This document shows positions 5,639 to 40,711 of a stretch of DNA of 42,520 nt, piece after piece (positions within the stretch are counted from its first letter, which is position 1; every line of letters begins with the position of its first letter). Under the pieces are notes generated by a model, which worked only from the letters and a program-made list of their open reading frames with translations, did no database searches and was not told the DNA's origin. The DNA lies in contig JAFSCM010000030.1 of the NCBI GenBank assembly GCA_017436765.1, forward strand, positions 1-42,520. The letters are read 5' to 3'. Source of the stretch: Oscillospiraceae bacterium (GTDB lineage Bacteria > Bacillota > Clostridia > Oscillospirales > Ruminococcaceae). The position numbers and the translations under genes were made by a program.

Positions 5639-5743
5639 TTATGCTCCTTTCAAAAAAATGAAAATATGGTATATAATAACATATATGTGTTACCATTTAA
5701 CTATCTTTTGGTGTTTATAATGTGAATTAATACCGTGTTCAGA

Positions 5744-5772
5744 TTGTTTGACGGAAAAATTTATGCTACAAT
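5744..5772 (+). promoter_or_regulatory. Promoter of yqeG-nfo pair
   Basis: TTGTTT (5744-5749), a 17-bp spacer and TACAAT (5767-5772) with an extended -10 TGC. It lies about 52 bases upstream of the yqeG ATG. Confidence 0.5.
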
Positions 5773-5824
5773 TTAAACATCTTAAGCATTTTATCACTAA
5801 ATAATAATTTTGCAAGAGGTTTTT

Positions 5825-6337: not shown

Positions 6338-6338
6338 T

Positions 6339-7190
6339 ATGGTAAAATTCGGTACAGCAGGGCTGGATAATAACTTTGCTCAGATGGGATTCAAAAAGAC
6401 GATAGAAGCACCCCTCTATCTTGAAAAAATGGGGCTGGATGCATTTGAATATCAGTGCGGCAGAGGTGTCCGTATAAGTGAAAAATCAGCATCAGAGTTC
6501 GGTGCTGCCTGCAGGGAGAAAAACATTACGCTGTCCCTCCACGCGCCGTATTATATTTCTATGTCAAGTCTTGAGGAAGAAAAACGCCTCAACAGCATAA
6601 ATTATATTCTGGACAGTGCAAAGGCGGTAAAGGCTATGGGCGGAAGCAGGGTGATTTTTCACTCAGGCTCCTGCGCAAAACTTTCAAGGGAGGCTGCTCT
6701 CGCAAAAGCAGTTGACACAATGAAGCTGATTATGAAGGCACTGGATGAAAACGGCCTTGGCGATATAACGGTATGTCCCGAAACTATGGGCAAGGTGAAT
6801 CAGCTTGGCACACTGGAGGAGGTGCTTACCCTTTGCGGCGTCGATGAAAGGATTGTTCCCTGCATAGATTTCGGTCATCTCAACGCAAGGGACCTGGGCA
6901 GCATAAAATCCATAGATGACTATAAAAATATAATCGGAACAATGGAAAAACGCATAGGTGCAGACAGAACAAAAATTTTCCACTCCCATTTTTCAAAGAT
7001 TGAATATACAACAGGGGGAGAGAAACGCCACCTTACATTTGAAGATGATATCTACGGTCCGCAGTTTGAGCCCCTTATGGAGATTATTGCCCAAAAAAAC
7101 CTTTCTCCTACAATAATCTGTGAATCGGACGGCACCCAGGGCCCGGATGCAGCACAGATGAAAAGGTACTATAAAAGTCTTGTCAGATAG
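6339..7190 (+). CDS. Endonuclease IV-like TIM barrel protein (AP endonuclease family 2)
   Basis: A 283-residue protein related to Nfo, which cuts DNA at abasic sites using three zinc ions. Metal-ligand positions can be traced: H68 (SLHAPY), H108 (IFHSGS), E148 (CPETMG), D177 and H180 (IDFGHLNAR), H215 (FHSHFS), H231 and E262 (CESDG). At the Asp-Arg-His site of the E. coli enzyme (D229-x-H231) this protein reads KRH, so one expected zinc ligand is replaced by lysine. The start is ATG 6339, chosen for GGAGAG at 6323-6328 and the one-base spacing from the yqeG stop; the earlier ATG at 6321 lies inside yqeG. It may be a DNA repair enzyme or a sugar-isomerase-like relative. It stops with TAG. Confidence 0.8.
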   Translation: MVKFGTAGLDNNFAQMGFKKTIEAPLYLEKMGLDAFEYQCGRGVRISEKSASEFGAACREKNITLSLHAPYYISMSSLEEEKRLNSINYILDSAKAVKAMGGSRVIFHSGSCAKLSREAALAKAVDTMKLIMKALDENGLGDITVCPETMGKVNQLGTLEEVLTLCGVDERIVPCIDFGHLNARDLGSIKSIDDYKNIIGTMEKRIGADRTKIFHSHFSKIEYTTGGEKRHLTFEDDIYGPQFEPLMEIIAQKNLSPTIICESDGTQGPDAAQMKRYYKSLVR

Positions 7191-7222
7191 AATTTTTTGT
7201 ATCTTACACTGTATTTTTTCAC

Positions 7223-7279
7223 AAATAGCTATATTTTATATAAATAGCTATTGAAAAATGGCAATATTTAATGTAAAAT
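7223..7279 (+). promoter_or_regulatory. Promoter of efp with tandem AAATAGCTAT boxes
   Basis: TTGAAA (7251-7256), a 17-bp spacer and TAAAAT (7274-7279). Immediately upstream are two copies of AAATAGCTAT (7223-7232 and 7242-7251), 19 bp apart; the core ATAGCTAT is itself a palindrome. The boxes end at the -35 and could be an activator site or an UP-like element. Confidence 0.5.
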
Positions 7280-7352
7280 TATATAGGTATAATATAATCA
7301 CATATTATGTTAAAAATTATAATAAGTTTTAAAACTTTTTGGAGGTAATATT

Positions 7353-7925
7353 ATGATTTCAGCAGGCGATTTCAGAAACGGTTTGACATTTGAAATTAAC
7401 GGCCAGCCACATATCATTGTGGAATTCCAGCACGTAAAACCAGGTAAAGGTGCTGCTTTCGTTAGAACAAAATACAAAAACCTTATCACAGGCGCAATCA
7501 GAGAAGAAAGCTTCAACCCAACAGCTAAATTCTCCCCGGCACGCGTTGACAGAGCAGAAATGCAGTATCTGTACAACGACGGCGAAGTTTACTATGTAAT
7601 GGATACAGAAACATTCGACCAGATCACACTCCCAATGGCAGAATACGGCGAATACTTCAAATTTGTAAGAGAAAACACAAATGTTAAAGTTCTCTCCTAC
7701 AACGGTAAAGTATTTGGTGTTGAACCGGAAAACTTTGTTGTTCTTGAAATCACAGAAACAGAACCAGGTTTCAAAGGCAACACAGCTACAAACACACTCA
7801 AACCTGCTACAGTAGAAACAGGTGCAGAAGTTAGAGTTCCTCTCTTTATCGAACAGGGCGAACTTATCGAAATCGACACAAGAGACGGTTCCTACATGGG
7901 TCGTGCTAAATCCTACGACAAATAA
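7353..7925 (+). CDS. efp: Translation elongation factor P
   Basis: EF-P binds between the P and E sites of ribosomes stalled at polyproline and stimulates peptide bond formation. The 190-residue protein shows the three-domain pattern: an N-terminal KOW-like domain, with the modified-lysine loop HVKPGKGAAFVRTK putting K32 at the tip, and two OB domains ending with the family close IEIDTRDGSYMGRA. The length is near the usual 185. The start is ATG 7353 with GGAGGT 6 bases upstream. It is followed after 44 bases by the CD1247-type gene with no terminator between, so the two are likely co-transcribed. Confidence 0.97.
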   Translation: MISAGDFRNGLTFEINGQPHIIVEFQHVKPGKGAAFVRTKYKNLITGAIREESFNPTAKFSPARVDRAEMQYLYNDGEVYYVMDTETFDQITLPMAEYGEYFKFVRENTNVKVLSYNGKVFGVEPENFVVLEITETEPGFKGNTATNTLKPATVETGAEVRVPLFIEQGELIEIDTRDGSYMGRAKSYDK

Positions 7926-7969
7926 TATCTTGCGTATTTAACTAAACAAAGAAAGGTAGAGTGGATACT

Positions 7970-8494
7970 ATGATGACACTTACAGAAAAACTCGCTTACA
8001 TCAAAGGCCTTGCAGAAGGTCTTGGCGTTGACGGCGCAACAAAAGAAGGCAAAGTTCTTCTTGCTCTCGTTGATCTTCTTGATGACGTGACAACTGCTGT
8101 TTCCGAACTTGAAAGCGATATGGACCAGGCTTACGAAGAACTTGACGCTATCGATGAAGACCTCACAGATATCGAAGATTTCCTCTGGGAAGATGAAGAT
8201 GAAGATGAATGTGACTGCTGCGACTGCGACGATGACTGGGATGATGAAGACTGGGACGACGAAGATGAATGCTGCTGTGGCCACGACCACGACGACGATG
8301 ACCTCTTCGACGGCGGTATCTACGAAATCACATGTCCGAAATGCGGCGAAATTGTATGCATGGACGAAGAAATGCTCTTCAGCCCTGACTGTGGCTGTCC
8401 AAACTGCGGCACAAGCTTTGAAGTAGACTTTGACGGCGTTGAATGCTGCGACGATGAAGACTGCTGCTGCCACGACCACGACGACGAAGAATAA
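7970..8494 (+). CDS. CD1247 N-terminal domain-containing, Cys/His/Asp-rich zinc-ribbon protein
   Basis: A 174-residue protein. The N-terminal helical part (TEKLAYIKGLAEGLGVD, then an acidic coiled-coil-like helix) matches the CD1247 N-terminal domain often found downstream of efp in clostridia. The C-terminal part has a zinc ribbon, CPKCG...CGCPNCG, flanked on both sides by a repeated acidic metal-binding-like motif: CCCGHDHDDDD before it and CCCHDHDDEE at the very end, plus CDCCDCDDD upstream. The function is unknown; metal binding is inferred. The start is ambiguous: AAAGGT at 7952-7957 could serve GTG 7961 (close) or ATG 7970 (more usual alignment). I chose 7970. A terminator follows at 8515. 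Confidence 0.8.
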   Translation: MMTLTEKLAYIKGLAEGLGVDGATKEGKVLLALVDLLDDVTTAVSELESDMDQAYEELDAIDEDLTDIEDFLWEDEDEDECDCCDCDDDWDDEDWDDEDECCCGHDHDDDDLFDGGIYEITCPKCGEIVCMDEEMLFSPDCGCPNCGTSFEVDFDGVECCDDEDCCCHDHDDEE

Positions 8495-8514
8495 TTCTTA
8501 AGTGAATAAACCTG

Positions 8515-8545
8515 AAAGGCATCGGATATCCGGTGCCTTTTTATT
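8515..8545 (+). terminator. Intrinsic terminator of efp-CD1247 operon
   Basis: AAAGGCATCGG (8515-8525) pairs with CCGGTGCCTTT (8530-8540) around an ATAT loop and is followed by T residues. Confidence 0.85.
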
Positions 8546-8553
8546 TGGCATAT

Positions 8554-8629
8554 ATTTAGAATAATATCTAAATATATATTGACAACTTTCTAAATACATG
8601 GTAGTCTGTATTTAGAAAATCATCTAAAT
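8554..8629 (+). promoter_or_regulatory. sdpRI promoter with array of inverted-repeat operators
   Basis: Two perfect copies of ATTTAGA-N6-TCTAAAT lie at 8554-8573 and 8610-8629. A third, half-perfect copy (5/7 on the left arm) lies at 8576-8595. The promoter TTGACA (8579-8584), 17 bp, TAGTCT (8602-8607, with TGG extension) sits among them. The arms also make an 11-bp perfect inverted repeat, TTTCTAAATAC/GTATTTAGAAA (8587-8618), centred on the -10. This is the expected layout for autorepression by the ArsR-type SdpR encoded just downstream. Confidence 0.7.
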
Positions 8630-8689
8630 ACGGATGATTTTCATATCAGCAGATTGCTGTTAAGCATTCAGCAGTAAAGGAGAAATAAG

Positions 8690-8965
8690 ATGCTTCAGGA
8701 CACTTTAAAGGCATTGTCGGATCCTACAAGAAGAAAAATACTGGAGCTGCTCAAAAAAGGTCCTCTTTCCGCAGGGGAGATAGGCGACCATTTTGAGATG
8801 ACAGGTGCAACACTTTCACACCATCTGTCAATACTGAAAAAAGCAGGTCTTGTGGACGACAGCAAAAAGGGCACCTTTGTATATTACGAAATCAACACCT
8901 CCGTTATGGAGGATATACTTACCTGGGTTGCAGGTTTTATGGAGGATAAAAAAGATGAAATTTAA
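8690..8965 (+). CDS. sdpR: ArsR-family autorepressor, SdpR-like
   Basis: A 91-residue winged-helix repressor. The start (ALSDPTRRKILELLKKGPLSAGEI) is the SdpR/ArsR signature, the recognition helix is in GATLSHHLSILKKAGLV, and the wing is DSKKGTFVYYEIN. No metal-binding ELCVCDL-type cysteines are present, so it is the non-metal SdpR type. In Bacillus, SdpR represses sdpRI and is sequestered at the membrane by SdpI bound to the SdpC toxin. The ATG at 8690 follows AAGGAG at 8677-8682. Its 3' end overlaps the sdpI start by 11 bases. It is probably autoregulated through the operators at 8554-8629. Confidence 0.9.
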   Translation: MLQDTLKALSDPTRRKILELLKKGPLSAGEIGDHFEMTGATLSHHLSILKKAGLVDDSKKGTFVYYEINTSVMEDILTWVAGFMEDKKDEI

Positions 8966-9599
8966 ATTTACGGATATTATTGCGGTGCTGGTGGTGGTTG
9001 CCAGTCTTGTTCACCTTATTGCTGTTTATCCGTCATTGCCTGCAGAAGTGGTTACCAACTGGGGTTTTAACGGAAATGTTGACTACAGCAGCAAAAGCAC
9101 ACTTTGGGTTTTATGGGCTGTAAATGCAGGTATGATTCCACTGTTTTTTATTATGCCCAAAATTGACCCAAAAGGAAAAAGTTATGCAAAGGTTGACGGA
9201 TTTTACGCATATTTTCGCCTTGTAACTGTAATTTTCCTTGCAGTGATGATGGAAATAACAATACTTTCTGCAAATGATCCTCACAGATTTAACGTAGGCA
9301 AAATTGCTGAAATAGGCATAGCATTGCTGTTCATTTTTATAGGCAACTATCTGCCAAAATGCAAGCAGAGTTTTACATTGGGCATCAAAACAATGTGGAC
9401 ACTTTCTGATGAAAGGGTGTGGAACAAAACACACCGTCTGGGAGGTGTGCTGTTTGTAATTGCCGGTGTTGTAACCCTTGCTGCAGCCTTGTTCTGTGGT
9501 GAAAAGGTTATGTTTGTTGTTACGATGGTTACAGTGCTGGGAACAGTTATAGTAACAACAGTGTACTCATATATATTGTATAGAAAATACAATCAGTAA
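8955..9599 (+). CDS. sdpI: SdpI family membrane protein (immunity/signal-sensor type)
   Basis: A 214-residue protein with about six membrane segments. It begins with a DUF1648-like part (TDIIAVLVVVASLVH, then LPAEVVTNWGFNGNVDYSSKS with the conserved 'P..ip.HwnfnG..D' feel) and ends with an SdpI domain: IGNYLPKCKQSFTLGIKT, WTLSDERVWNKTHRLGG, close to the family pattern GN.mpk...N...GiRtpWTl.se.vW.kTHr..G. In B. subtilis SdpI protects against the SdpC killing factor and also titrates SdpR. No sdpABC toxin genes are seen nearby, so here it may answer to another signal. The start is ATG 8955, with GGAGG 9 bases upstream inside sdpR. Confidence 0.9.
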   Translation: MKFKFTDIIAVLVVVASLVHLIAVYPSLPAEVVTNWGFNGNVDYSSKSTLWVLWAVNAGMIPLFFIMPKIDPKGKSYAKVDGFYAYFRLVTVIFLAVMMEITILSANDPHRFNVGKIAEIGIALLFIFIGNYLPKCKQSFTLGIKTMWTLSDERVWNKTHRLGGVLFVIAGVVTLAAALFCGEKVMFVVTMVTVLGTVIVTTVYSYILYRKYNQ

Positions 9600-9629
9600 A
9601 TACTATACAATTTTATACAAAAAGTAGTC

Positions 9630-9665
9630 AAAAACTGTCGGATTATATGGTTCGACAGTTTTTTT
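9630..9665 (+). terminator. Terminator of sdpRI, also carrying inverted 0A-like boxes
   Basis: AAAACTGTCG (9631-9640) pairs with CGACAGTTTT (9653-9662) and is followed by a T run. The arms contain TGTCGGA (9636-9642) and TTCGACA (9651-9657); the second is a perfect reverse-complement Spo0A box. Confidence 0.8.
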
Positions 9666-9684
9666 ATGCCTTTGATTATATAAT
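9651..9684 (+). promoter_or_regulatory. Likely Spo0A-activated spoIIE promoter with 21-bp spacer
   Basis: TCGACA (9652-9657, 5/6 to TTGACA) and a perfect TATAAT (9679-9684) are separated by 21 bp rather than 17. The -35 overlaps a perfect 0A box, TTCGACA (9651-9657, the complement of TGTCGAA). In B. subtilis, spoIIE and spoIIG use sigma-A promoters with over-long spacers (21-22 bp) that need Spo0A~P. The match in position and spacing is the basis for the call. Confidence 0.6.
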
Positions 9685-9720
9685 CTGCCATAACATATAT
9701 TATATGCAAAGGACTGTAAA

Positions 9721-11949
9721 ATGATGACAGGAACACAGCTGAAAGGAAGAAATATATACAGGGCAGGAAAGGGCAGGGTTCTGAAGATTCCTGAAAAACA
9801 TATAATACTGTTGTGTGCAGCATCGGTTGTGACTGCGTACAGTGATATTAATTTTGCATCGCTTCCACTGATTTTTGTGGTTATGTGCAGGGAAAGAACA
9901 AGCAGATATATCTGTGCATCGTCGGCACTGCTCTGCTTTGCCTCCACTGTTGTTACCGGCAGCTTTTACATACCCTATATGTCCTTTGTTTTCATATACC
10001 TGATTGCCGACTGTCTGCTGATGCAGAACAGCAGATACTCTATATATTTTTCATCAGCAGTCTTTGCTGCGGTAAAGGGATATGTGCTTTCCTTTGGATA
10101 TTCTTCGGTGTACTGGGCTGTAATGGCGCTGGAACTGGCGGCATTTTTTCTTGTTCCCAGGGCGGTGCAGTCGGGTGTTGAACATCTCAGGGAAAACAGC
10201 GAGGTGCTGACTTCTGTGCAGACAGCAGAATGTGCGGCAGCGCTTGCGGTTGCGTCAATGGCACTTGCAGGAGTAAAGGTGTGGGGGATAAATATCCCTT
10301 TGTGCTTTCTTATGAGCTGCTGCTTTTTCTACGGAACAAAAAACAATATGCTGCTGTCGGTGCTGTCTGCGGTGATGACCGCATTTGTGCTGTGTAATGA
10401 AAAGCATTTTTCTTTTATTTTTATCGGTCTTTTGCTTACAGCCACTGCGGCTTTTGTATTGCTGCAGAAAGGAAATGCAGGGTATTTTGCAACTTTTGCA
10501 TCGGCTCTGGCTGTCGCCATTGTATTTATGCCACGGTTCAACAGCTCTGTTATAATAGTCACAGTTTCGGTTTCCCTCACAGTGTGTTTTGTTGCGGTAA
10601 AATACAGCAAACCTGTAAAAAAGAATACTGACAGGGACACAACAGGAGAAAATGATTATTACAGACTTATAGGAAATGTGGACAGACTGGGGAGGGCTTT
10701 CCGCTTTCTCGGGCATACCGTAATGGATATTTCTGACCTTATATCAAAAAATACGGTACCTGCGGAAATGCAGGATATTGTTGCAGGCGAGGTATGCCGC
10801 AGATGTGCGGAAAACCATATCTGCTGGCAGGAAAATTACAGCTGTACACAGAAGCAGTTTTCAGAGCTGGAAAAAGCAGCAAAAAAAGGTGAGCATTTCA
10901 GTTTTGAACCTCTGTTTGCTTCGCGGTGCGGAAAAACCGATAAACTTGCGGAAAGTTTTGAAGGGGCAGCAAAGCTGGTATCAACACAGCAGCTTATCGG
11001 CCGTGCAGGACAGCACAGCAGGCAGATACTGCAGAACCAGTTTCTCGCCATGGCGCAGACACTGCAGGACATAGTGTCCCACTCCTGCCGCAGCGGTATT
11101 GCAAATACGGCTTTTACCCATACTTTAAACAGTTTTCTTGCTGCTATGGGGAAAAAGGTAAACTACTGTATATGCTTTCAGGACAGCGGCAGGTGCGTTA
11201 TAAGCACAGCTGATTATTTCACCCCGTCGGAAACGGAGCGGATAAAAACAAAGCTCGAAAGTGTTTACGGCACAAAGTTTGACCTTCCCTGTAAAGAGGA
11301 TGAAAGCGGCGGAACAGTATATACATTTATTGAAAAAGCGGGATATACCACCGAGTTTTCCTGCCGCAGTAAAAGCAGATACAAAGTGTGCGGTGATGTG
11401 TGCGAAGAATTTGCAGCGGAAGAATACAGATATGTTGTTCTGGCAGACGGAATGGGCACAGGCAGCTATGCATCGGCAGAAAGCAGAACAGCTGTGGCTA
11501 TGCTTAAAAAGCTGCTTACAGCAGGTATCAGTCCGCTTACCGCAGCGGAGATAACGAATATCGCTCTGAACCTTAAGGGAACAGGGCAGTCCTGTGTGGC
11601 GGCGGATATACTGCAGATAAACTGTTATAGCGGAAAATGTGCACTGTACAGTGCAGGCGGCGCTCCGGCCCGTCTGATAAGCGGAACAAAAAGCAGAATA
11701 ATATATAAAGAAAGCCTGCCCATAGGTATCCTCAGGGATACAAAGCTGGCAAAGACAGAGTTTGAACTGAAAAACGGAGATACCGTTGTGCTTATGTCAG
11801 ACGGTGTCAGGACAGACGGAATACTGTCCGGAAAGCTTGCGCTTATGGCAGAAAAATGCACAGCTGAAGAGATGGCGGAATTTATCATCTCACATCAGGA
11901 TTCTGCGGATGACGCAACTGCAGCAGCAGTGAAATTTACAAGAATATAA
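9721..11949 (+). CDS. spoIIE: Stage II sporulation protein E (SpoIIE) phosphatase
   Basis: A 742-residue membrane-bound PP2C-type phosphatase. In Bacillus it dephosphorylates SpoIIAA at the polar septum, which releases sigma-F in the forespore. The N-terminal ~300 residues hold about ten hydrophobic segments, then comes a central regulatory region with a cysteine pattern (CRRCAENHICW), then the phosphatase domain. Metal-binding aspartates are visible at D559 (CGDVC), D576 (LADGMGTG), D694 (MSDGV) and D730/D731 (DDATAA). It is shorter than the B. subtilis protein (about 827) but in range for clostridia. The ATG at 9721 follows AAAGGA at 9708-9713. It is preceded by a Spo0A-like promoter and followed by a terminator. 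Confidence 0.93.
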   Translation: MMTGTQLKGRNIYRAGKGRVLKIPEKHIILLCAASVVTAYSDINFASLPLIFVVMCRERTSRYICASSALLCFASTVVTGSFYIPYMSFVFIYLIADCLLMQNSRYSIYFSSAVFAAVKGYVLSFGYSSVYWAVMALELAAFFLVPRAVQSGVEHLRENSEVLTSVQTAECAAALAVASMALAGVKVWGINIPLCFLMSCCFFYGTKNNMLLSVLSAVMTAFVLCNEKHFSFIFIGLLLTATAAFVLLQKGNAGYFATFASALAVAIVFMPRFNSSVIIVTVSVSLTVCFVAVKYSKPVKKNTDRDTTGENDYYRLIGNVDRLGRAFRFLGHTVMDISDLISKNTVPAEMQDIVAGEVCRRCAENHICWQENYSCTQKQFSELEKAAKKGEHFSFEPLFASRCGKTDKLAESFEGAAKLVSTQQLIGRAGQHSRQILQNQFLAMAQTLQDIVSHSCRSGIANTAFTHTLNSFLAAMGKKVNYCICFQDSGRCVISTADYFTPSETERIKTKLESVYGTKFDLPCKEDESGGTVYTFIEKAGYTTEFSCRSKSRYKVCGDVCEEFAAEEYRYVVLADGMGTGSYASAESRTAVAMLKKLLTAGISPLTAAEITNIALNLKGTGQSCVAADILQINCYSGKCALYSAGGAPARLISGTKSRIIYKESLPIGILRDTKLAKTEFELKNGDTVVLMSDGVRTDGILSGKLALMAEKCTAEEMAEFIISHQDSADDATAAAVKFTRI

Positions 11950-29872: not shown

Positions 29873-29901
29873 TTGAAAAATTCATCATAAAGTGGTAAAA
29901 T
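29873..29901 (+). promoter_or_regulatory. Strong promoter of the giant surface protein gene
   Basis: TTGAAA (29873-29878), a 17-bp spacer and TAAAAT (29896-29901) with an extended -10 TGG. Transcription should start near 29908, giving a leader of about 110 bases. Confidence 0.65.
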
Positions 29902-29980: not shown

Positions 29981-30020
29981 AAATTGGGCAAATATCAACA
30001 ACAAAGGAGGCGCATACAAT

Positions 30021-33000
30021 TTGGAAAAGAACATTAAAAAATTGTTTAAACGCATAACCTCAATGGTTCTTGCAGTGATGATTTTTGTCGGCGCAGTTCC
30101 GGCAATGCCACTGACAGCTTATGCGGCCACAGCAGTACCGGATGACCCTGCAAAGCTTGTGGATAATTCCACAGCCAACGACTGGAAGAATATCTTCTAT
30201 TCAACAGGCGCTGCTGACAACAAAATTACAACTGCAAACGCAGGCGCAGTATGGACAGACAAATCCGTATTCAAAACCGAAGAAGAATTTATGAAGATGA
30301 TAAAGGACGCTACAGGTGATGATTTCGGTTACGGACATTCGACAGGAAAGGTTTCAGCAGATGAATTCAATCTGGCTGACAACAGCTTCCTGGTGTCTTT
30401 GTCTGCAATGGCAGCCAATGAAACAGTAGTGGGCAGGTCAGCAGCTCCTACCGATACAATGATTATACTGGATATTTCCAGCTCTATGTATAATGGCACA
30501 AGCCTTGACCCTAGCACATTGCAGACAATGTTTGAGGCGGTTAATAATACGATCACATCTCTGCAGGCTTTGCACCAGAATAACCGTGTAGGTATTTCTG
30601 TGTACTTCGGCCGTGAAAATCTGGCACAGTCCACAGAAGCTCACAGTATGCTTCTGCTTCCGCTGGACAGATACACACCTGTAGACGGCAAGTATGTTAA
30701 AGTTAACACAAAAAGCGGAAAACTTGAGGGCATACAGGTTGTAAGCGGTGTTAAAAACAGCAGCGGCAGCAATGCTTCTGTTGTAAAATACGATGTGAAA
30801 TCTATTGCAGGTACATATGCACAGATGGGTATTCTCCATGCTCTCAAACAGTTTATGAGAGAAGATATTTCTGACAAGGCAACAGTTGGCAGCATGAAAG
30901 TAGACAGAACACCTGTATTTCTGTTTATGTCTGACGGTGAGCCGACAGCTGCATCTGTAGACTATACCACATATCCTGACTACAACCACAGCACAGGAAC
31001 AGATGTGGACGGCATAGACCGTATGGCAGATATGGGTAACAACCAGGTTGACAACAGAAACCCTGCAGAAACAGACTTCCTTACACAGCTTACAGCAGCT
31101 TATGCAAAAGCTGTAGTTGATGAAAAATATGTGGCAAAAACACCTCTGTTCTACACACTCAGCCTTGGTACAAGCATCAGCCTTGATGTTATGGACCCTA
31201 AAGGCAACGATGCAACAAGTGAAGAAATACTGAAAAATCCTTCTGCATATACATCAACACAGGTTGCAAAAGCCAATGAAAACAGAACAATTGTAAAATA
31301 TTGGGAAGATTTGCTGGACGGTGATAACAAAGCTACAGTCAATACAACAATACTCAGCGCAACACTGTCAAACCCATGGGGAAGTTCCAAAGTTGATAAG
31401 AAGTTTACTGTAAACCGTGTTGATAAAATCACAAGTGCAGCCCAGAAATATTATGTTGACAAGCACTTTACAGCTGCAAACGCAAGCAACCTGAGTGAAG
31501 AATTTACAAAGATTGTTTCCGATATCGGCCTGCAGTCCAAATATTTCCCTACACTTGTAAAGGACAACGAAAACCTGGAAGGCTATATCTCCTTTGTAGA
31601 TAAAATCGGCGAATATATGAATGTTACAGAGATAAAAGGTCTTGTAATCGGCGATAAACTCTACACAGGTGCTTCCTTTGCAAGCAAACTCAACACAGGT
31701 GCTCTGGGCACAGTTACAGAGGCTACAGACCTTGGTGATGAACTGGTATGGTCCATCGAACAGCGCCTTGGCAATGTTGATGCAGATACAGTAAGAACAC
31801 TTATCGACAACGCATACAATGCAGGTCAGCTCAGCTATACAAGCGATACAGAATATTCCAACTATGTGGGCTGGTATGCAAATGCTGACGATGAGTTTAT
31901 CGGCTTCTGGAAAGAGGGCGCAGCTCTGCCTGAAAAGACAGGCGATGCAAAGAAAGACCCAGCTTTCTATGTAAAATCATACATATATCTTGGTGAAACT
32001 GATGGCGACCATCATATTGCCGACTCCGATATGATGTACGCAACTGTAAGATGGAGAAAAAATATTGAAACAGGTGAAGAATCTGTTGCCTTTGCAGTTC
32101 CTGCAGCGCTTATCCCTACAGTTACATACAATATCAAACTTAACGAAAGCTATAATCTTGAATCCCTTTCAAGACAGGATGCAACACCAATCCGTCTTGT
32201 TTACGAAGTATCCCTTGATTCCGCAATCACAGCAGACACAGTGCTGGATGTTGTAAGCAGCGATTATATCAATGCAAAAGGCAACAAGGACGGTGAAGGC
32301 AACATCTACTTCTACACAAACCAGTACGATGTTGAAAACAAGACAGGCTACGGCACAGACAACGCATACTCCTATTTTGCTCCTTCAAGATACAACAGCA
32401 AATACTACTATCAGCAGAACGAACTTGTTTATTCAAACAATACAGGCTCACTTTATAAGGGTGATTCTGCACCGACAGCAGGTTTCCGCAGATATACTGT
32501 TTTTGAAAAAGACGGTTCAGCGCTGAAAACAAATACAGTTTACCGCAAACTGTCCGATGCAGCTCTCGGCACAGCGGTTAAAAACACAGACGGCACATGG
32601 TATATCCCACAGGGCAATGTCCATGTAAACCTTGACGGCTTTATCTTTGATAAAACAGAAAATATCACAGATACAATCACAAGAAGCAACGAATCCTTTG
32701 TTGACACACACGGCGGTGCTATCCCTGTAAACCAGACAACACACAACTTTGTTGTTGGTTCCACACTGGGCAACAACGGCCGTATGGCAGTAAAACCTTC
32801 CACAGGCATTGTAATAACAAAGGTTGTGGACAGCTTTGCAGCAGGTGATGGTGCAGCAAAAGAATTTACATTTGTTGTTACAAGACCTGCAGCAGATACA
32901 GCAGCAGAATCCTTTGCAGTTACAAAGGTAGCCAAAGACGGCACAAAGACTGCCGCAGCACTTGAATTTGCAGCAGGCAGCACTGCAGCAGAAATCAAAC

Positions 33001-36000
33001 TCAAAGACGGCGAAACAGCATATATTTCCGGCATGACAGCAGGCAAAACATATACTGTTTCTGAAAAATTTGAGGAAAACTATGTTGTTTCAGATGTTAA
33101 GGTTGACGGCGAAAGCCAAAGCGCAGGCGCAACAGACGCAACAGTGACAACTGTTACAAACAAACTTGTTAAAGTTCAGCTCAACAATGCTCCAAGGGGC
33201 AAAGGTCAGCTGACAGTTTCAAAATATATCACAAACGAATACGGCAGCCTTGTATCCTTCCCTGAAGATTTGAAGTTTGAATTTACAGTTACATTCAAAC
33301 TGAACGGTGCTGAACTTAAAGGTGAAGATTTTGCCGTTACAACAGGTGAAAGCACTGTTACAAAAACAACAGATGACAACGGCAAATTCACATTTGAACT
33401 CAAGGATACAGAATCTGCACAGATTGCTGATATCCCTGAAGGCACAGAGGTTACAGTTGCTGAAACAGCAAACCCACAGTTTAAAACATCATATAAAGAA
33501 AACGGCGAAGACGGTGACGGCATTGTTGTTGTAAAACGCAACATTTACGAATCCGTTGCTGTATACAACGAATACATACCGGATGATGATATCAATGTTC
33601 CGCTTGTAATCACAGGTGAAAAAACAGTTAAAAATGCAGGCGGCGATGACAAATGGGCTGACGAAGTGTTCAAGGTACAGCTTCAGCGCCGTGAAGGGGA
33701 CAGCTGGGTAACTTTTGCCGAAAGAGAAATTAAAAACGAAGACGGCAAGAGAACATTTGACTTCTCCGCAGAAATGCAGGCAGAAAAATTCACAAAACCT
33801 GGTGTTTATGCATATCAGCTGGTTGAGTTTATCCCTGCAGACGCAGACAGGTATGGTCACATTGTTTATGACCGCACAGAACACACCTTCTCCATCACAG
33901 TTGCAGACCTTAACGGCGACGGCAAGCTGGAAATCAGTGCTGTGCGTTCCAACCATACAGCAACAGATATTCCGTTTGCAGATGGTAAATATGAAATTAC
34001 AGCAGACCTTAAAAATGAATATGTAAACTATATTCCTGCTGTGGTTACACTCAAGCTCAACAAGGCTATGACAAATGATTCAGACAGCCCTGTTCCGACA
34101 CTCAACGGCTACAGATTCGGCATTTATGATGATGCAGAATGTACAGGTACACCTGTTGCAACAACAGAGCCGACCGATACTGTAGGCGAAACATCAAAAG
34201 CACTTACATTTGATGCAGATACATTTACAGCAGGTCAGACTATAACCTACTACATCAAGGAAATTGATGACGGCAAACAGAGCATCAGCTACAGCAGTGA
34301 TATAATTAAAGTTGTTATCACATTTGCAGACGGCGGCAGCGGCAAGCTGGTAGGTACACCTAAATACTTTAAAGGTGACAGTGAAATCGCAGATGTTGTG
34401 TTCACAAACGAATACAAAGTTGCAGAAACAACAGCAAGCTTTGGCGGCACAAAAACACTGGAAGGTAAAGCACTCAAAGACGGTGACTATAAATTTGAAG
34501 TTAAAGCTGTGACAAGCGGCGCACCAATGCCTGCACAGGCAGTTGTTGCAAACAGCGGTGCAAACTTCCGCTTCGGCGATATTACCTTCGACAAAGTGGG
34601 CACATACAGTTACACAGTATCCGAAGTTATCCCTTCTGAAGCTGTAGACAACAGACATAACGGTGTTGAATACGACACAACAGTTTACAATGTTCATGTT
34701 ACAGTAACAGATACAGGTAAAGATGCAGACGGCTGTTCCTGCGGCAGAAACCACCTTGCAGCAACAGTTTCTGTTGACGAAATCACAGGCACAGAAATGC
34801 CTTTCACAAACGACTACACAGCAGACCCTGTTGAAGTTACAATCGACGGCACAAAGAAACTCGAAGGCAGAGATATGTTCCTTGGCGAGTTTACCTTTGA
34901 GCTTTACGAAACAGACGAAAACTATGCAATCCCATCAGGTGCAGCGCCTGTTCAGAGTGTTCAGAACAATGCTGATGGCACATTTACATTTGCACCTATC
35001 AAATATGAGCCACAGGGATACGACTATGAAGCTACATTCTACTATGTTGTAAAAGAAAAAATTCCTGAAGGCGCAGACAGCAATAATGTTTACAATGGTG
35101 TAACATACGATGCAGCCGAATACAGAGTTGCTGTTGAAGTGGAAGATGACTACAGCGGTGAACTTGATGCAGATATTATCGTAAATACCGTTAAAGACGG
35201 CGATATTACCTTCAGCAACAAATACACAGCACGCGAAGGCAAAATCAGTATTCCTGGTACAAAAACACTTACAGGCAAAACTCTTGCAAACGGTATGTTC
35301 TCCTTCAGACTTGAAGCAGTTACAGAAGACGCACCAATGCCTGACAAAACAACAGTTGCAAACACAGGCAGCAGCTTCAGCTTCAAAGATATCAGATTCA
35401 CAAAAGCAGGCACATACACTTATAAAGTAAGCGAAGTTCTCCCTGCAGGCATCAATGAAGAAAACAGATTTGAAGGCACAACCTACGATACATCCAGCTA
35501 CACAGTTGAAATCACCGTAACAGACAACCTTAAAAAAGGTGAACTGGAACCTGTAATCACAGGCATATACACAGCAACCGGTGCTATTGCAGAAAATGTT
35601 GCGTTTACAAATGTATACGAAGTTCGCGATAAAACTGAAATTACAATAGCAGGCCAGAAGAAAATTACAGGTATGGCACTGGAAGATGGTGCATTTACAT
35701 TTGAATTGTACAAAGCAGATGACAGGTTTGAAATCACAGACAGTACACCACTGCTTACAACAACAAATGACCAGCACGGCAACATAGTATTTGATACTAT
35801 CCACTACAAAGGCAGCGATGTGGGCAACCACTACTATGTAGTAAAAGAAAAAGTTCCTGCAGAAGCAGTGGACAATGTTCTCAACGGTATCACATACGAT
35901 ACAAGAGAATTCTGTATCACAGTTAATGTTGCTGACAACGGCAGGGATGACCTTACCGCAAATATTACATCTGTAGCAGCAAAAGGTGCAGCAACAAGGG

Positions 36001-39000
36001 CACTGGCATTTTTCTTTACATTTGAAAACAGCTACAACACAGAGGATGTTTCCGTAGTGCTGGACGGTACAAAAACACTTACAGGCAGAGATTTTACACA
36101 GACAGATATTTTTGAGTTCGGTCTTTACGAAGCAGCAGTTGCTCAGGGCGACGAAATGAAAGCCTGGACTGTAGGCAGAAATCTCCAGAATGTAAGCACA
36201 ACAGCTGCAGACCTTGAAACATTCAAGTTTGCAGAAATCAAATATGAAACAACCGGAACATACTACTATGTAGTAAAAGAAACAGTTCCGGCTGTAAAAG
36301 CACAGGGCATCACATACGACAGTACAGAATATCTGTACAAGGTTGTGGTGGAAGACAACGGTTACGGCGCACTTGTTGCTGACAAGGCAGTTGTGGCAAA
36401 ACGCACACCAAAAGCAGAAGGCAGCGGCTATGACTATGCAGCAGCAACAGCAGCAGCATTTACAAACACCTTCACACCTGAACCGGTGACAATTGCCATC
36501 GACGGTGTAAAGATTCTCACAGGTGACAGCCGTGAAGCTGTAAAAGCAGGCGAATTTACATTTGAACTTTATGAAACAGGTGAAAACTTTGTTATTCCGC
36601 AGAGTGCAGCAGCAGACAAGGTAACAGCAACAGGCTATATCGGCGACGATAATACAGTTGACCTTGCAGCAGACACAAAAGCAGCTGATGCAAACAGCAA
36701 CGGTGTTGCGGATGAATTCGGCTTTGCAGCAAAAGCAGGCGACAAGAATGATATCTTCTACTTCGACGCTCCTGAAACCCGTTACTATGTGGTTAAGGAA
36801 CAGAAAGGTGAAGACAAGACAATCACCTACTCACCTATCGAACACAACTTCAAGGTTGTAGTTACAAAGAATCAGTCAACAGGCATACTTTCTGCACATA
36901 TTGAAGAGGTAAAAACCAAACTTGATTCTGTAACCATCACAAATGTTTACGAAACAAAAGAAGCATCAACTGTTATCGGATTCAGAAAATACCTTGAAAA
37001 CAAAACAGGTGTTGAAATAGGTCTTGATACATTTAAGTTCGGTGTTTACACAGACGAAAACTGCAAAACTGCATATAAAGAAAACGGCGAAGCTCTTGTA
37101 ATCACAGCAGACAAAAACGGCTACAGAGAACATACCTTCACCTTTACAGATGCAGACTACAAGGTAAGCGATAAATATGTTTACTATCTCAAAGAAATCC
37201 CGGGCACAGTTCCTGGCATGACATACGATAAAACAGTTTACAAGCTTACAATCACCCTCACATTTGACAGTGAAAACAATCTTGTGGCAACACCTGTGCT
37301 TGAAAAAGTCGGTACAAGCAGCATTTCTGCAATGGGCGGCGCACCGTCACTGATGATGGCTGATATTGTGGCAGATTTCTACAACAAGTATGAACTCACC
37401 AAGACAGATATAAAAATTGAAGGTGAAAAATCCTTTACAAGCCTTGTAAGCGGCTGGGTATGGGAAGATGAAGATACATTTACAATCGAACTGTACAAAA
37501 CAGATGCAGGCCTGAACTATGTGGAAGGCAGAAAACTTGGCGAAGCTGTTATCAGCAATACAAACAAGAAATTCAGCTTCACATCCACATCAATTCCTGA
37601 ACTTGAATTTACATCGGCAGGTACATATTACTTTGTTGTAAGAGAAATTCACGGCGGCAAAACAATAGACGGCATAGTATATACAGGCAAAGAGTATGCT
37701 GTTGTGGTAACAGTGGCAAAAGGCGACAACGGTGATGCAGATGCACTTGAAAACAACCTTGTTGCAACTGTAAAAACACATCTTGTAGGCCACGATGCAG
37801 CAATCAGCAATTACATCGTATTTGCAAATGAATACAGCATACCGGACGATTCCGTACAGCAGGCAATTATCAAGGCGAAAAAATTCCTTGAAGGCAGAAA
37901 TATTGTTGACCATGAATTCAATTTCGAACTGTACGAAGCAACAGCAGACGCATCCGGCAGGCTGACAATCAAAGCAGGCAAAGAAGATGAACCTCTCAAG
38001 GCAACAACAAATACAGGCAATACAGTAACATTCCCTGCAATAAGCTACAATGCGCTGGATATAGGTGAACATTACTACATCATCAAAGAAGCAGACACAC
38101 ATAACCCTACAATTACATATTCAAGCGACGAATATGGCGTAAAAGTTGTAGTGGATGATGAAGACGGCAAGCTCAAGACACCTGTGATTACCTATATGGA
38201 TATAAACGGTAATGCAATAGGTGCAGAACAGGTAGAGTTCAAAAACACCTACAGATCACAGAGTGTAGAAGTTATTGTTCCAATCGAGAAAGAATTTGTA
38301 AACAACACAGGCGTTACACTTAACAAGGATAACGGCGGCAAATTCGAATTTGGTCTCTACACAGATGCAGCATGCACAAATCTTGCAGATAAGAAAGAAA
38401 TCGTGCTCAGCGGCAACGCAGAATTTAAACTTACATATACTGATACAGATGTTCCGGCAGGAAAAGCATATCTTGAAAAGGAATACTACCTGAAAGAAAT
38501 TGTTCCTGATACACCTAAACCGGGTATGATTTATGATGACACTGTATACAAGGTATATGTAAAGGTTGGTTTTGAAGAGGTTGATGAGGATAACAATCCT
38601 GCAACACCTGCAGTTGTAAAACTTACAGCCAGATCAGAAATCACCCGTGCAGATGACAGCAGAGCAGCACTTTACAGCGCAACATTCTCCAACAAATACG
38701 AACTTGCACACGCAAATGTAGTAATTGAAGGCAGAAAAGAACTTGCAGGTCACGATGCACTCAAGAGCGATTTTATGTTCCGTCTCTATAAAGCAGACAG
38801 CAGCTGGAATATAGACAGCAGCGCAGAACCGCTCAGAGCAGCAAACGACTATAAAGTTGACCCTGCTGCACCAGGCGAAGATTATGACAAGTTTGTATTT
38901 GCATCTATCCCTTACAGCAAGGCAGGTACATACCACTATGTTGTAAAAGAAGAAAAAGGCTCACTTGGCGGCGTAACATATGACGACAGCGAATACCGCG

Positions 39001-40640
39001 TAACAGTTACAGTTACAGCTGATGACAGTGACGCTGACAATGACGGTAAATACGATGAACTTATCGCAGATGTTGATGTAGCCAAAGTTGATGCAGCAGG
39101 CAATGCTGTAACAGCAACAGACGACCTTGACGAAAACGGCATTGTTGATATCGAATTCAACAACAGCTATGTTCCTGCTGGCAAATTCTCCATTTCCGGC
39201 AGCAAGGAAATTGCAGGACGCGACTGGAGAGAAGGCGACAGCTTCGGCTTTGAAATCTATCTTGCAGACAGCAGCTTCAACCCTGTTGATGCAGACGGCG
39301 ACAGCACAAACGGTGTAACACCTGCAGCAGAAGACGATGTTAAGTTCGCAGACACAGACAGAATCTTTGAATTTGTTGATATCGCTCTCACAGGCGAAGT
39401 TCTTGTGGACGGCAATGCAGACAACGATAAATTCTACTTTGTTGTAAAAGAAAAAGCAGGCAGCATTCCTGCAATGGAATACGACACAAGAGAATACCGT
39501 GTAACGGTTGCAGCAACAGACAACAAGGACGGCACAATTACATTTGCAGCACCTGTTATCGAAGTTGGTACACAGACAACATCCTTCATCTTCTTCACAA
39601 CAACACAGTGGACAGCAGCAGATGAAATCAAGTTTGTAAACAGATATATCACAGAACCTACAGCTGTAACCTTCAAAGGTACAAAAGCTCTCACAGGTTC
39701 CCTGACAGGCCGCACAATCAAGGACGGCGAGTTTACATTTGAACTTTACTCTGCAGCAGTGGATGCAAGCGGTGTATGGACAAAAGACACTCTTGTTAAG
39801 TCTGTGGAAAACAAAGGTACAGAATTTGTATTTGCAGGCGACTATCTCAAACTCAGCCAGCTTGGCACAAGCTACTTTGTTGTAACAGAAAAAGCAGGCG
39901 AAAACAGCATTATCGGCTATGACGACACTGAACACAGAATCAAGGTTGTTGTTGAAGAAGCTGACAATGCAGCAACACCTGACAAAGCAGAACTTAAAGC
40001 AACAGTTTACTATGTTGCAGAAGACGGCAGCGAAACAGAAATTACAGAAACTGTAAAACTTGAATCCATGCTGGGCTTTGAAAACAGCTACAACGACACA
40101 GAGGTTGTAATTGAAATCAACAAAGATGTTCTTTGTGAAGATGATGCTGAACACGGCAAAGGCGGCTTCGAATTCCAGCTTGTGCGTACAACTGACAACA
40201 AGAAGTACGAAAAAGCTGTATCCGACAGCAACGGTAATACAAGTTACACACTCCGCTTTGACGAAAGAGATATCGGCAAGACATATACATACCGGCTCAC
40301 AGAAATTGACCAGGGCGAAGACGGTATGGAATACGACGAAACTGTATTTGAATTTGTGATTGTTCTCACAGCAGATAATGCAACAGACAGCCTCGTTGCA
40401 ACAATCACACAGAACGGTACAGCAGTATCCAGAGGCGAAGTAAACTTCTACAATACTTACGATGGTGAAACACCTCCTCCACCGGAAGAAGATGACCCGG
40501 GCAAGGATGTAGTGGTTGAAACAGGCGACATTTCCAATATAGGTCTTTACGGTATGGCTATGACATTGAGTGCAGCAGTTATCGCAGCAATCTTTATCTG
40601 GCGCAGAAAAAAAGATGACGAAACTGAAAACAATGCATAA
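30021..40640 (+). CDS. Giant VWA-tipped, multi-domain isopeptide (pilin/FctA-type) surface adhesin
   Basis: A 3539-residue cell-surface protein. In order: signal peptide (1-36, cut near YAATA), a von Willebrand A domain with MIDAS D151-x-S153-x-S155 and D305 (FMSDGEPT), a ~500-residue region I cannot assign, two Cna-B-like segments (about 925-1060 and 1060-1185), 16 tandem FctA/Spy0128-type domains (1186-3480), a proline/acid stalk (PPPPEEDDPG), the sorting-like motif VVETG (3498-3502), a membrane helix and the tail RRKKDDETENNA. The domains are of the kind that form internal Lys-Asn isopeptide bonds, so the chain is probably a stiff, protease-resistant fibre with the VWA tip binding host or matrix ligands. 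The start is TTG 30021, with AAAGGAGG 10 bases upstream. No sortase gene or second pilin is nearby. The gene has its own promoter, leader and terminator. Confidence 0.9.
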   Translation: MEKNIKKLFKRITSMVLAVMIFVGAVPAMPLTAYAATAVPDDPAKLVDNSTANDWKNIFYSTGAADNKITTANAGAVWTDKSVFKTEEEFMKMIKDATGDDFGYGHSTGKVSADEFNLADNSFLVSLSAMAANETVVGRSAAPTDTMIILDISSSMYNGTSLDPSTLQTMFEAVNNTITSLQALHQNNRVGISVYFGRENLAQSTEAHSMLLLPLDRYTPVDGKYVKVNTKSGKLEGIQVVSGVKNSSGSNASVVKYDVKSIAGTYAQMGILHALKQFMREDISDKATVGSMKVDRTPVFLFMSDGEPTAASVDYTTYPDYNHSTGTDVDGIDRMADMGNNQVDNRNPAETDFLTQLTAAYAKAVVDEKYVAKTPLFYTLSLGTSISLDVMDPKGNDATSEEILKNPSAYTSTQVAKANENRTIVKYWEDLLDGDNKATVNTTILSATLSNPWGSSKVDKKFTVNRVDKITSAAQKYYVDKHFTAANASNLSEEFTKIVSDIGLQSKYFPTLVKDNENLEGYISFVDKIGEYMNVTEIKGLVIGDKLYTGASFASKLNTGALGTVTEATDLGDELVWSIEQRLGNVDADTVRTLIDNAYNAGQLSYTSDTEYSNYVGWYANADDEFIGFWKEGAALPEKTGDAKKDPAFYVKSYIYLGETDGDHHIADSDMMYATVRWRKNIETGEESVAFAVPAALIPTVTYNIKLNESYNLESLSRQDATPIRLVYEVSLDSAITADTVLDVVSSDYINAKGNKDGEGNIYFYTNQYDVENKTGYGTDNAYSYFAPSRYNSKYYYQQNELVYSNNTGSLYKGDSAPTAGFRRYTVFEKDGSALKTNTVYRKLSDAALGTAVKNTDGTWYIPQGNVHVNLDGFIFDKTENITDTITRSNESFVDTHGGAIPVNQTTHNFVVGSTLGNNGRMAVKPSTGIVITKVVDSFAAGDGAAKEFTFVVTRPAADTAAESFAVTKVAKDGTKTAAALEFAAGSTAAEIKLKDGETAYISGMTAGKTYTVSEKFEENYVVSDVKVDGESQSAGATDATVTTVTNKLVKVQLNNAPRGKGQLTVSKYITNEYGSLVSFPEDLKFEFTVTFKLNGAELKGEDFAVTTGESTVTKTTDDNGKFTFELKDTESAQIADIPEGTEVTVAETANPQFKTSYKENGEDGDGIVVVKRNIYESVAVYNEYIPDDDINVPLVITGEKTVKNAGGDDKWADEVFKVQLQRREGDSWVTFAEREIKNEDGKRTFDFSAEMQAEKFTKPGVYAYQLVEFIPADADRYGHIVYDRTEHTFSITVADLNGDGKLEISAVRSNHTATDIPFADGKYEITADLKNEYVNYIPAVVTLKLNKAMTNDSDSPVPTLNGYRFGIYDDAECTGTPVATTEPTDTVGETSKALTFDADTFTAGQTITYYIKEIDDGKQSISYSSDIIKVVITFADGGSGKLVGTPKYFKGDSEIADVVFTNEYKVAETTASFGGTKTLEGKALKDGDYKFEVKAVTSGAPMPAQAVVANSGANFRFGDITFDKVGTYSYTVSEVIPSEAVDNRHNGVEYDTTVYNVHVTVTDTGKDADGCSCGRNHLAATVSVDEITGTEMPFTNDYTADPVEVTIDGTKKLEGRDMFLGEFTFELYETDENYAIPSGAAPVQSVQNNADGTFTFAPIKYEPQGYDYEATFYYVVKEKIPEGADSNNVYNGVTYDAAEYRVAVEVEDDYSGELDADIIVNTVKDGDITFSNKYTAREGKISIPGTKTLTGKTLANGMFSFRLEAVTEDAPMPDKTTVANTGSSFSFKDIRFTKAGTYTYKVSEVLPAGINEENRFEGTTYDTSSYTVEITVTDNLKKGELEPVITGIYTATGAIAENVAFTNVYEVRDKTEITIAGQKKITGMALEDGAFTFELYKADDRFEITDSTPLLTTTNDQHGNIVFDTIHYKGSDVGNHYYVVKEKVPAEAVDNVLNGITYDTREFCITVNVADNGRDDLTANITSVAAKGAATRALAFFFTFENSYNTEDVSVVLDGTKTLTGRDFTQTDIFEFGLYEAAVAQGDEMKAWTVGRNLQNVSTTAADLETFKFAEIKYETTGTYYYVVKETVPAVKAQGITYDSTEYLYKVVVEDNGYGALVADKAVVAKRTPKAEGSGYDYAAATAAAFTNTFTPEPVTIAIDGVKILTGDSREAVKAGEFTFELYETGENFVIPQSAAADKVTATGYIGDDNTVDLAADTKAADANSNGVADEFGFAAKAGDKNDIFYFDAPETRYYVVKEQKGEDKTITYSPIEHNFKVVVTKNQSTGILSAHIEEVKTKLDSVTITNVYETKEASTVIGFRKYLENKTGVEIGLDTFKFGVYTDENCKTAYKENGEALVITADKNGYREHTFTFTDADYKVSDKYVYYLKEIPGTVPGMTYDKTVYKLTITLTFDSENNLVATPVLEKVGTSSISAMGGAPSLMMADIVADFYNKYELTKTDIKIEGEKSFTSLVSGWVWEDEDTFTIELYKTDAGLNYVEGRKLGEAVISNTNKKFSFTSTSIPELEFTSAGTYYFVVREIHGGKTIDGIVYTGKEYAVVVTVAKGDNGDADALENNLVATVKTHLVGHDAAISNYIVFANEYSIPDDSVQQAIIKAKKFLEGRNIVDHEFNFELYEATADASGRLTIKAGKEDEPLKATTNTGNTVTFPAISYNALDIGEHYYIIKEADTHNPTITYSSDEYGVKVVVDDEDGKLKTPVITYMDINGNAIGAEQVEFKNTYRSQSVEVIVPIEKEFVNNTGVTLNKDNGGKFEFGLYTDAACTNLADKKEIVLSGNAEFKLTYTDTDVPAGKAYLEKEYYLKEIVPDTPKPGMIYDDTVYKVYVKVGFEEVDEDNNPATPAVVKLTARSEITRADDSRAALYSATFSNKYELAHANVVIEGRKELAGHDALKSDFMFRLYKADSSWNIDSSAEPLRAANDYKVDPAAPGEDYDKFVFASIPYSKAGTYHYVVKEEKGSLGGVTYDDSEYRVTVTVTADDSDADNDGKYDELIADVDVAKVDAAGNAVTATDDLDENGIVDIEFNNSYVPAGKFSISGSKEIAGRDWREGDSFGFEIYLADSSFNPVDADGDSTNGVTPAAEDDVKFADTDRIFEFVDIALTGEVLVDGNADNDKFYFVVKEKAGSIPAMEYDTREYRVTVAATDNKDGTITFAAPVIEVGTQTTSFIFFTTTQWTAADEIKFVNRYITEPTAVTFKGTKALTGSLTGRTIKDGEFTFELYSAAVDASGVWTKDTLVKSVENKGTEFVFAGDYLKLSQLGTSYFVVTEKAGENSIIGYDDTEHRIKVVVEEADNAATPDKAELKATVYYVAEDGSETEITETVKLESMLGFENSYNDTEVVIEINKDVLCEDDAEHGKGGFEFQLVRTTDNKKYEKAVSDSNGNTSYTLRFDERDIGKTYTYRLTEIDQGEDGMEYDETVFEFVIVLTADNATDSLVATITQNGTAVSRGEVNFYNTYDGETPPPPEEDDPGKDVVVETGDISNIGLYGMAMTLSAAVIAAIFIWRRKKDDETENNA
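33576..40460 (+). repeat. Sixteen tandem isopeptide-forming domains within the giant protein
   Basis: Domain ends were placed at each closing F-x-N-x-Y-type strand. By residue the domains end at 1334, 1465, 1599, 1735, 1866, 2005, 2151, 2310, 2457, 2605, 2744, 2893, 3050, 3209, 3357 and 3480, giving lengths of 123-159. All 16 have a Lys in the first strand (type GTKTLTG), a Glu in the YYVVKE-type strand and an Asn in the closing strand. DNA copies are well diverged, so this is an old protein-level repeat, not a recent DNA expansion. Confidence 0.85.
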
Positions 40641-40680: not shown

Positions 40681-40711
40681 AAAAATCCCTTGAGAAATCA
40701 AGGGATTTTTT
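40681..40711 (+). terminator. Intrinsic terminator of the giant gene
   Basis: AAAAATCCCTTGA (40681-40693) pairs perfectly with TCAAGGGATTTTT (40698-40710) around a GAAA tetraloop, followed by T. Confidence 0.92.

What the first reader, a model, noticed from the sequence alone, without database searches (positions are those of the whole stretch)
30021..40640. A single 3539-residue adhesin built as a 16-link isopeptide chain with a VWA tip
Most sortase-dependent pili are polymers of separate pilins with a VWA tip protein. Here one polypeptide appears to hold both: a MIDAS-bearing VWA domain at the N-terminus and 16 consecutive FctA/Spy0128-type domains. I checked each domain by eye. All 16 keep a first-strand Lys, a Glu in the K/S/T/R-E strand and the closing-strand Asn, so 16 covalent Lys-Asn bonds are possible. 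Conservation of the whole triad while other positions and loops diverge suggests selection for every bond. A self-contained 'pre-polymerised pilus' without any pilin or sortase gene nearby is unusual.
Basis: partly seen in the sequence, partly recalled or inferred. Interest (0 to 1): 0.8.

Follow-up and report, generated by a model that had tools for sequence, protein, structure and literature searches.

The report
A whole pilus in one protein
This bacterial gene encodes one 3,539-residue protein that joins a head predicted to fold like a pilus-tip adhesin to sixteen pilus-shaft-type domains, each keeping the three residues that would lock it with an internal covalent bond, so a single molecule likely does the job of an assembled pilus; searches found over 200 large relatives.

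Summary
Confirmed: 30021-40640 is one open frame (3,539 aa) with 16 FctA/Spy0128-type domains; Lys, Glu and Asn are kept in 16 of 16. A profile aligns them with Spy0128's bond residues, and an AF2 model of two of the domains (pLDDT 90.5) matches FctB and Spy0128. Two more CnaB-like domains and the head carry conserved triads too, so up to 19 bonds are possible. The head's best Foldseek match is PitA, a streptococcal pilus-tip adhesin (E 1.2e-23). Tip and shaft folds in one chain are therefore supported.

It is not isolated: the head finds 203 proteins of giant size. In 118 of the 120 listed, a profile finds 1,118 FctA domains (5-32 per protein); 1,059 of 1,061 fully aligned ones keep Lys-Glu-Asn. 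The first, second and last links are conserved as caps while the middle varies. A published S. salivarius protein already has 17 FctA domains, and VWA-headed fibrillar adhesins are a known class. The genome has a pilus locus and a class B-type sortase on other contigs; the protein's own sorting signal is atypical (VVETG). Verdict: new variant of a known kind. Bonds, ligand and anchoring are untested.

The parts
29873..29901 (+). promoter-like site (TTGAAA-17-TAAAAT)
   Evidence: such sites are no more frequent there than in shuffles (2 found, 2.7 expected)
30005..30010 (+). ribosome site AGGAGG, 10 bases before the TTG start
   Evidence: sequence
30021..40640 (+). giant single-chain fibrillar adhesin, 3,539 aa
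30021..30128 (+). predicted signal peptide, about residues 1-36
   Evidence: read from the sequence (hydrophobic stretch ending AYAA); no predictor run
30129..32810 (+). head, residues 37-930, predicted PitA/SpaC/RrgA/GBS104-type fold
   Evidence: AF2 pLDDT 83.6, Foldseek PitA E 1.2e-23, VIA
30423..31535 (+). VWA domain, about residues 135-505
   Evidence: VIA match range 99-469 of the model; GBS104 profile hit
30471..30485 (+). MIDAS DISSS, residues 151-155; T265 at 30813-30815 and D305 at 30933-30935
   Evidence: 169-171 of 171 heads
30261..30263 (+). K81, candidate head isopeptide Lys; D527 at 31599-31601; N767 at 32319-32321 or N792 at 32394-32396
   Evidence: K81 171/171, D527 171/171, N767 163/164, N792 163/163; bond inferred
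32793..33200 (+). CnaB-like domain, triad K934/E1015/N1056
   Evidence: DUF7601, two stretches in all; 30 of 30 in A2
33201..33587 (+). CnaB-like domain DUF7601, triad K1068/E1148/N1183
33588..34028 (+). FctA D1 (cap), K1201/E1269/N1332
   Evidence: first domain in 109 of 113 relatives
34023..34421 (+). FctA D2 (cap), K1348/E1414/N1463
   Evidence: second domain in 76 of 90 relatives
34416..34823 (+). FctA D3, K1478/E1535/N1597
34818..35231 (+). FctA D4, K1612/E1679/N1733
   Evidence: AF2
35226..35624 (+). FctA D5, K1748/E1805/N1864
   Evidence: AF2
35619..36041 (+). FctA D6, K1880/E1943/N2003
36036..36479 (+). FctA D7, K2018/E2087/N2149
36474..36956 (+). FctA D8, K2164/E2260/N2308
36951..37397 (+). 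FctA D9, K2323/E2392/N2455
37392..37841 (+). FctA D10, K2470/E2542/N2603
37836..38258 (+). FctA D11, K2621/E2690/N2742
38253..38705 (+). FctA D12, K2757/E2826/N2891
38700..39176 (+). FctA D13, K2906/E2977/N3048
39171..39653 (+). FctA D14, K3062/E3144/N3207
39648..40097 (+). FctA D15, K3222/E3290/N3355
40092..40466 (+). FctA D16 (cap), K3368/E3428/N3478
   Evidence: last domain in 71 of 84 relatives
40512..40637 (+). C-terminal sorting signal: VVETGD, hydrophobic stretch, RRKK tail (residues 3498-3539)
   Evidence: sequence; compared
40681..40710 (.). symmetric stem with A/T runs on both sides, terminator-like
   Evidence: listed on the - strand; 1 found, 0.3 expected

Best explanation
[quoted passage not shown] Shown: one frame with a hydrophobic N-terminus, complete MIDAS, two CnaB-like domains, 16 FctA domains with K/E/N in each, and a C-terminal TG-hydrophobic-RRKK tail. 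Predicted from models and profiles: the head has the PitA/SpaC/RrgA/GBS104 fold with the VWA domain nested in a second domain, and the FctA domains have the Spy0128/FctB fold with Lys in the first strand and Asn in the last (modelled for D4 and D5). Inferred: after secretion each domain closes its bond by itself with Glu as catalyst, giving a stalk of roughly 90 nm that resists stretching and proteases and holds the metal-dependent head away from the cell. It would do what a tip-plus-shaft pilus does without subunit polymerisation. Across relatives the length appears to change by gain and loss of interior links while the first two and the last link stay as caps.
Confidence: 0.8

Rival explanations
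1. It is one subunit (for example the tip) of a heteropolymeric pilus: the separate pilus locus in the same genome, with a class C sortase, would link it to shaft pilins.
For: The genome encodes a SpaA-type pilus locus with a class C sortase, and the head resembles pilus tip proteins.
Against: That locus has its own 1,678-aa LPSTG protein and lies on another contig; the giant already carries a shaft of 16 domains; no YPK[NHD]-type pilin lysine motif was found in it (though the local pilins did not match that pattern either, so this is weak); its signal (VVETG) differs from LPSTG, LPETG and MPNTG of that locus.
Confidence: 0.08
2. The stalk is right but the protein is poorly anchored or shed: VVETG is a weakened sorting signal, so it works mainly released into the medium.
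For: P stands at that place in 88 of 153 C-termini with a TG/TN motif that also end TGD; genus relatives have VPNTGD, VPNTGD, VPDTGD and PPVTGD; NVQTG was not cleaved by C. difficile SrtB in vitro (PMC4155245, passages).
Against: The same VVETG is kept in the near-identical allele P0002 (22 listed differences, none there), and the hydrophobic stretch and RRKK tail are intact. Streptococcal pilin sortases acting on Spy0128 take a motif with V at that place (EVPTG, recalled).
Confidence: 0.15
3. Only some links are bonded: Lys, Glu and Asn are kept for folding, and bonds form in a minority of domains.
For: No bond was observed; a shared fold does not show chemistry. Some domains of another isopeptide family (DUF11/CLIPPER) appear to lack the bond (PMC12617251, passages). 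One family domain (P0073, 1723-1843) lacks the Glu.
Against: K, E and N are 3 of the only 4 invariant columns and present in 1,059 of 1,061 across the family while most of the domain varies.
Confidence: 0.1
4. The 16 repeats are an assembly artefact of fewer domains.
For: Repeats can be mis-assembled in draft genomes.
Against: Domains share 15-43% identity, too divergent to mis-assemble; a near-identical 3,541-aa protein is in another record (P0002). Genus relatives vary (17, 16, 6 and 11 FctA domains).
Confidence: 0.02

Closest known systems
Streptococcus pilus islet 2: PitA (VWA tip) and PitB (FctA-type shaft)
   Same: The head model's best Foldseek hit is PitA 7w6b; stalk domains match PitB 7w7i/4s3l and Spy0128. 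VWA tip plus FctA-type shaft.
   Different: There tip and shaft are separate proteins encoded with dedicated sortases (PMC10548224, passages); here they are one chain with no pilus gene found in the window.
Spy0128 major pilin of Streptococcus pyogenes
   Different: A two-domain subunit polymerised by a sortase (recalled); here 16 domains in one chain.
Fibrillar adhesins with VWA head and SpaA-type stalk (PMC8286594, passages)
   Same: N-terminal adhesive domain, repeated stalk domains, sortase-type anchor, one chain spanning the fibril.
   Different: FctA does not occur in that paper's text (0 occurrences); this protein is below the Pfam VWA_2 cut-off and has a non-LPxTG signal, so such a screen could miss it.
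SALIVA_1475 of Streptococcus salivarius F6-1 (PMC5847202, passages)
   Same: Listed with 17 FctA domains.
   Different: Combined with 10 Antigen_C domains and listed over three gene numbers; no VWA is mentioned in that paper (0 occurrences).
Isopeptide proteins of the AlphaFold DB survey (PMC12617251; abstract, section 2.2 and passages)
   Same: FctA and DUF7601 are listed as isopeptide families; tandem arrays and fibrillar adhesins noted; GBS104's Lys188-Asp597-Asn692 has the same order as our K81-D527-N767/N792.
   Different: The survey held no model above 1,280 aa, so this size class was not examined.

Membership tests
FctA / Spy0128-type isopeptide domain (PF12892) | Profile match over the curated cut-off | tested here: met
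   16 matches over 22.1 bits
FctA / Spy0128-type isopeptide domain (PF12892) | Lys, catalytic Glu and Asn at the Spy0128 positions | tested here: met
   16 of 16; aligned to 3b2m positions (the second Glu, E258, was not aligned)
FctA / Spy0128-type isopeptide domain (PF12892) | CnaB-like pilin fold | tested here: met
FctA / Spy0128-type isopeptide domain (PF12892) | Lys-Asn bond actually formed | not testable with these tools
   Needs mass spectrometry or a crystal structure
Fibrillar adhesin | Adhesive domain near the N-terminus | tested here: met
   VWA with full MIDAS and tip-adhesin-like model; binding itself untested
Fibrillar adhesin | Stalk-like region forming a rigid rod | tested here: inconclusive
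   16 + 2 stalk-type domains shown; rigidity not shown
Fibrillar adhesin | Surface anchor | tested here: inconclusive
   TG motif, hydrophobic stretch and RRKK tail present, but VVETG is atypical
Sortase-polymerised pilus | Separate pilin subunits and a pilin sortase encoded together | tested here: not met
   Sortase matches in the genome are all on other contigs and FctA matches all lie in this one frame; the pilus locus is on contig C19. What lies beyond the window was not seen
Class B sortase substrate | (S/P)PXTG-type signal as for C. difficile SrtB | tested here: not met
   VVETG in this protein; 88 of 153 C-termini in the set have xPxTGD

The most novel reading that the evidence does not exclude
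A widespread family of 'monomeric pili': tip, shaft and anchor of a PitA/PitB-like pilus fused into one giant chain, in which every link is kept bonded, the first two and last links are fixed caps, and the reach of the adhesin is tuned by gaining or losing interior links (5 to 32 seen).
Probability: 0.6. Interest if true: 0.65.

Novelty: new variant of a known kind. Interest (0 to 1): 0.5.

Why it matters
The AlphaFold DB isopeptide survey stopped at 1,280 aa, and these proteins run to 5,256 aa, so this size class went unexamined there. The near-absolute retention of the triad (1,059 of 1,061) makes a directly testable claim that an unbonded link is not tolerated in such a stalk, and the fixed-cap, variable-middle pattern suggests how bacteria change adhesin length. 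They are also natural one-chain fibres in which every link may be covalently locked.

Tried and rejected
Measuring Lys-Asn distances: models came back without coordinates (one search found no model file), so strand order, fold match and profile alignment stand in. The head sequence alone found nothing in the PDB; a head profile found GBS104. I read 23 of those 40 by eye: in 22 the residue stands beside the aligned column (alignment slips), one (P0073, 1723-1843) lacks the Glu. The unmasked profile gave two exceptions of 1,061: that one and P0095/880-995, which lies before the stalk and is probably not FctA. The 1,118 therefore include a few false stretches (P0002 is counted with 17, by hand 16). 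No Rfam family in the window, no PHROG, GC like its surroundings: no sign of a mobile element. Promoter-like sites upstream are no more than shuffles give. Paper searches listed no description of a VWA-headed FctA giant; that is all the claim of scarcity rests on. One search found 1,079 papers and listed 12, so it tests little, and most subscription papers are not held.

Rows dropped before counts: P0046 and P0048 (same head, no FctA) of 120 proteins; P0002 (the window's own near-identical allele); P0173-P0181 (about half-length head matches). Searches scored only the candidates sharing most words, and one search listed 120 of 203. Genome counts include the window's own genome.

Full report
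What is there. The frame 30021-40640 runs 3,539 codons from a TTG with a good ribosome site (AGGAGG 30005-30010). A promoter-like site lies at 29873-29901, but such sites are no more frequent there than in shuffles; a symmetric terminator-like stem at 40681-40710 follows the stop. The named neighbours are a thioredoxin-reductase-like gene upstream and asnS downstream, so it looks like a single-gene unit. From N to C: predicted signal peptide (about 1-36), head (37 to about 930), two CnaB-like domains (about 925-1189; DUF7601, two stretches), 16 FctA domains (1190-3482), an acidic, proline-rich spacer and a TG-hydrophobic-RRKK tail.

The 16 links. Aligned, the domains share 25% identity on average (15-43%); K, E, N and one Tyr are invariant in 16 of 16 (positions). 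A profile of adjacent domain pairs aligns to Spy0128 (3b2m) with Lys, Glu and Asn on K36, E117, N168 and the second Lys and Asn on K179 and N303 (counted by hand; numbering offset and bond residues recalled; E258 was not aligned). The AF2 model of D4-D5 has pLDDT 90.5; its best structural matches are FctB and Spy0128, strongest on D5, and Spy0128 in Foldseek (E 1.6e-10; over both domains rmsd is 12.6 A, so the angle between domains differs). In both domains Lys falls in the first long strand (model 13 and 149), Glu at the end of a middle strand (80 and 206) and Asn in the last strand (134 and 265). This supports bonds; it does not show them.

A family. A head search found 203 giant relatives and a search at smaller size 60, some named partial by their source. 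In 118 of 120 listed giants a profile finds 1,118 FctA domains, 5 to 32 per protein, median 8. Of 1,061 with all three columns aligned, 1,059 are K, E, N. A profile blind to these columns finds the same number, so detection does not depend on them. Loci fetched with their DNA add 127 domains without an exception among aligned letters (L021 is a goat-cecum genome). D1, D2 and D16 match the first, second and last domain of relatives in 109/113, 76/90 and 71/84; D3-D15 match interior domains of any rank. Of 196 head pairs at 70% identity or more, 76 differ in domain number (some proteins are partial, such as P0072). In the window protein no recent duplication is seen (best internal pair 43.8% in the allele P0002). 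The family is patchy: 5 of 16 genomes of the genus, 15 of 297 of the family, 32 of 394 of the order with residues 109-533 alone. P0046 and P0048 carry the same head on other stalk domains, so head and stalk behave as modules.

Anchoring. The genome has a SpaA-type pilus locus with a class C sortase (contig C19) and a class B-type sortase (C143; 153.5 bits against a cut-off of 153.75). Matches to the latter occur in 16 of 16 genus genomes, some only 30-33% identical, and 16 of 17 genomes with a head relative have a sortase match. In L021 a class B sortase gene is the second gene upstream of the giant, and in G014 a sortase-type gene is the next one upstream. Relatives mostly end in xPxTGD (88 of 153 with a TG/TN motif), like the (S/P)PXTG signals of C. 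difficile SrtB (PMC4155245, passages); this protein has VVETG. Anchoring by the class B-type sortase is the likely reading, and the V is its weak point.

How it likely works. Inferred: the chain is secreted, each link closes its own Lys-Asn bond, and a stalk of roughly 90 nm (16 domains at 11 nm per two, from PitB in PMC10548224, passages) presents the metal-dependent head. The ligand is unknown. Host: where the closest mfd relatives have names they are Ruminococcaceae/Oscillospiraceae genomes from metagenomes (88-89% identity; the closest, 94%, is unnamed).

Known or new. Works like: a VWA-tipped, FctA-shafted pilus. Is: by its parts a fibrillar adhesin, with rod and anchor untested. Prior art: VWA fibrillar adhesins (PMC8286594, passages), a 17-FctA protein (PMC5847202, passages), isopeptide families (PMC12617251; abstract, section 2.2, passages). 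New here, as far as the searches reach: tip fold and shaft fold in one chain, the near-absolute triad rule over 1,061 domains, and fixed caps with a variable middle.

Noticed in passing
L012 (G000:C19) 226-10471: Separate pilus locus: signal peptidase I-like protein, 1,678-aa LPSTG protein with His/Cys-rich repeats at its N-terminus, SpaH/EbpB-type pilin (LPETG), class C sortase, Cna_B protein with proline-rich spacer (MPNTG) and a weak second sortase.
   Followed up: partly
L021 7375-19472: In a goat-cecum relative the giant (2,597 aa) has a class B sortase gene two genes upstream and a thioester-domain (TED) surface protein downstream.
   Followed up: partly
L051 (G257): Head and FctA stalk lie in two different reading frames of one contig (876 and 1,333 aa); a broken gene, a split gene or a sequencing error. 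Described only, not joined.
   Followed up: no
P0046, P0048: Same head on other stalk domains (PF09479, PF03442, PF18676) without an FctA match: heads and stalks may be exchanged as modules.
   Followed up: no
window 34215-34244: Against the near-identical allele P0002, changes cluster in one short block of D2 (residues 1399-1408, with a two-residue length difference); the triads are untouched.
   Followed up: partly
P0115: 5,256-aa relative with 32 FctA stretches; links 9 and 14 are 92% identical, which suggests recent duplication of a block of links.
   Followed up: no
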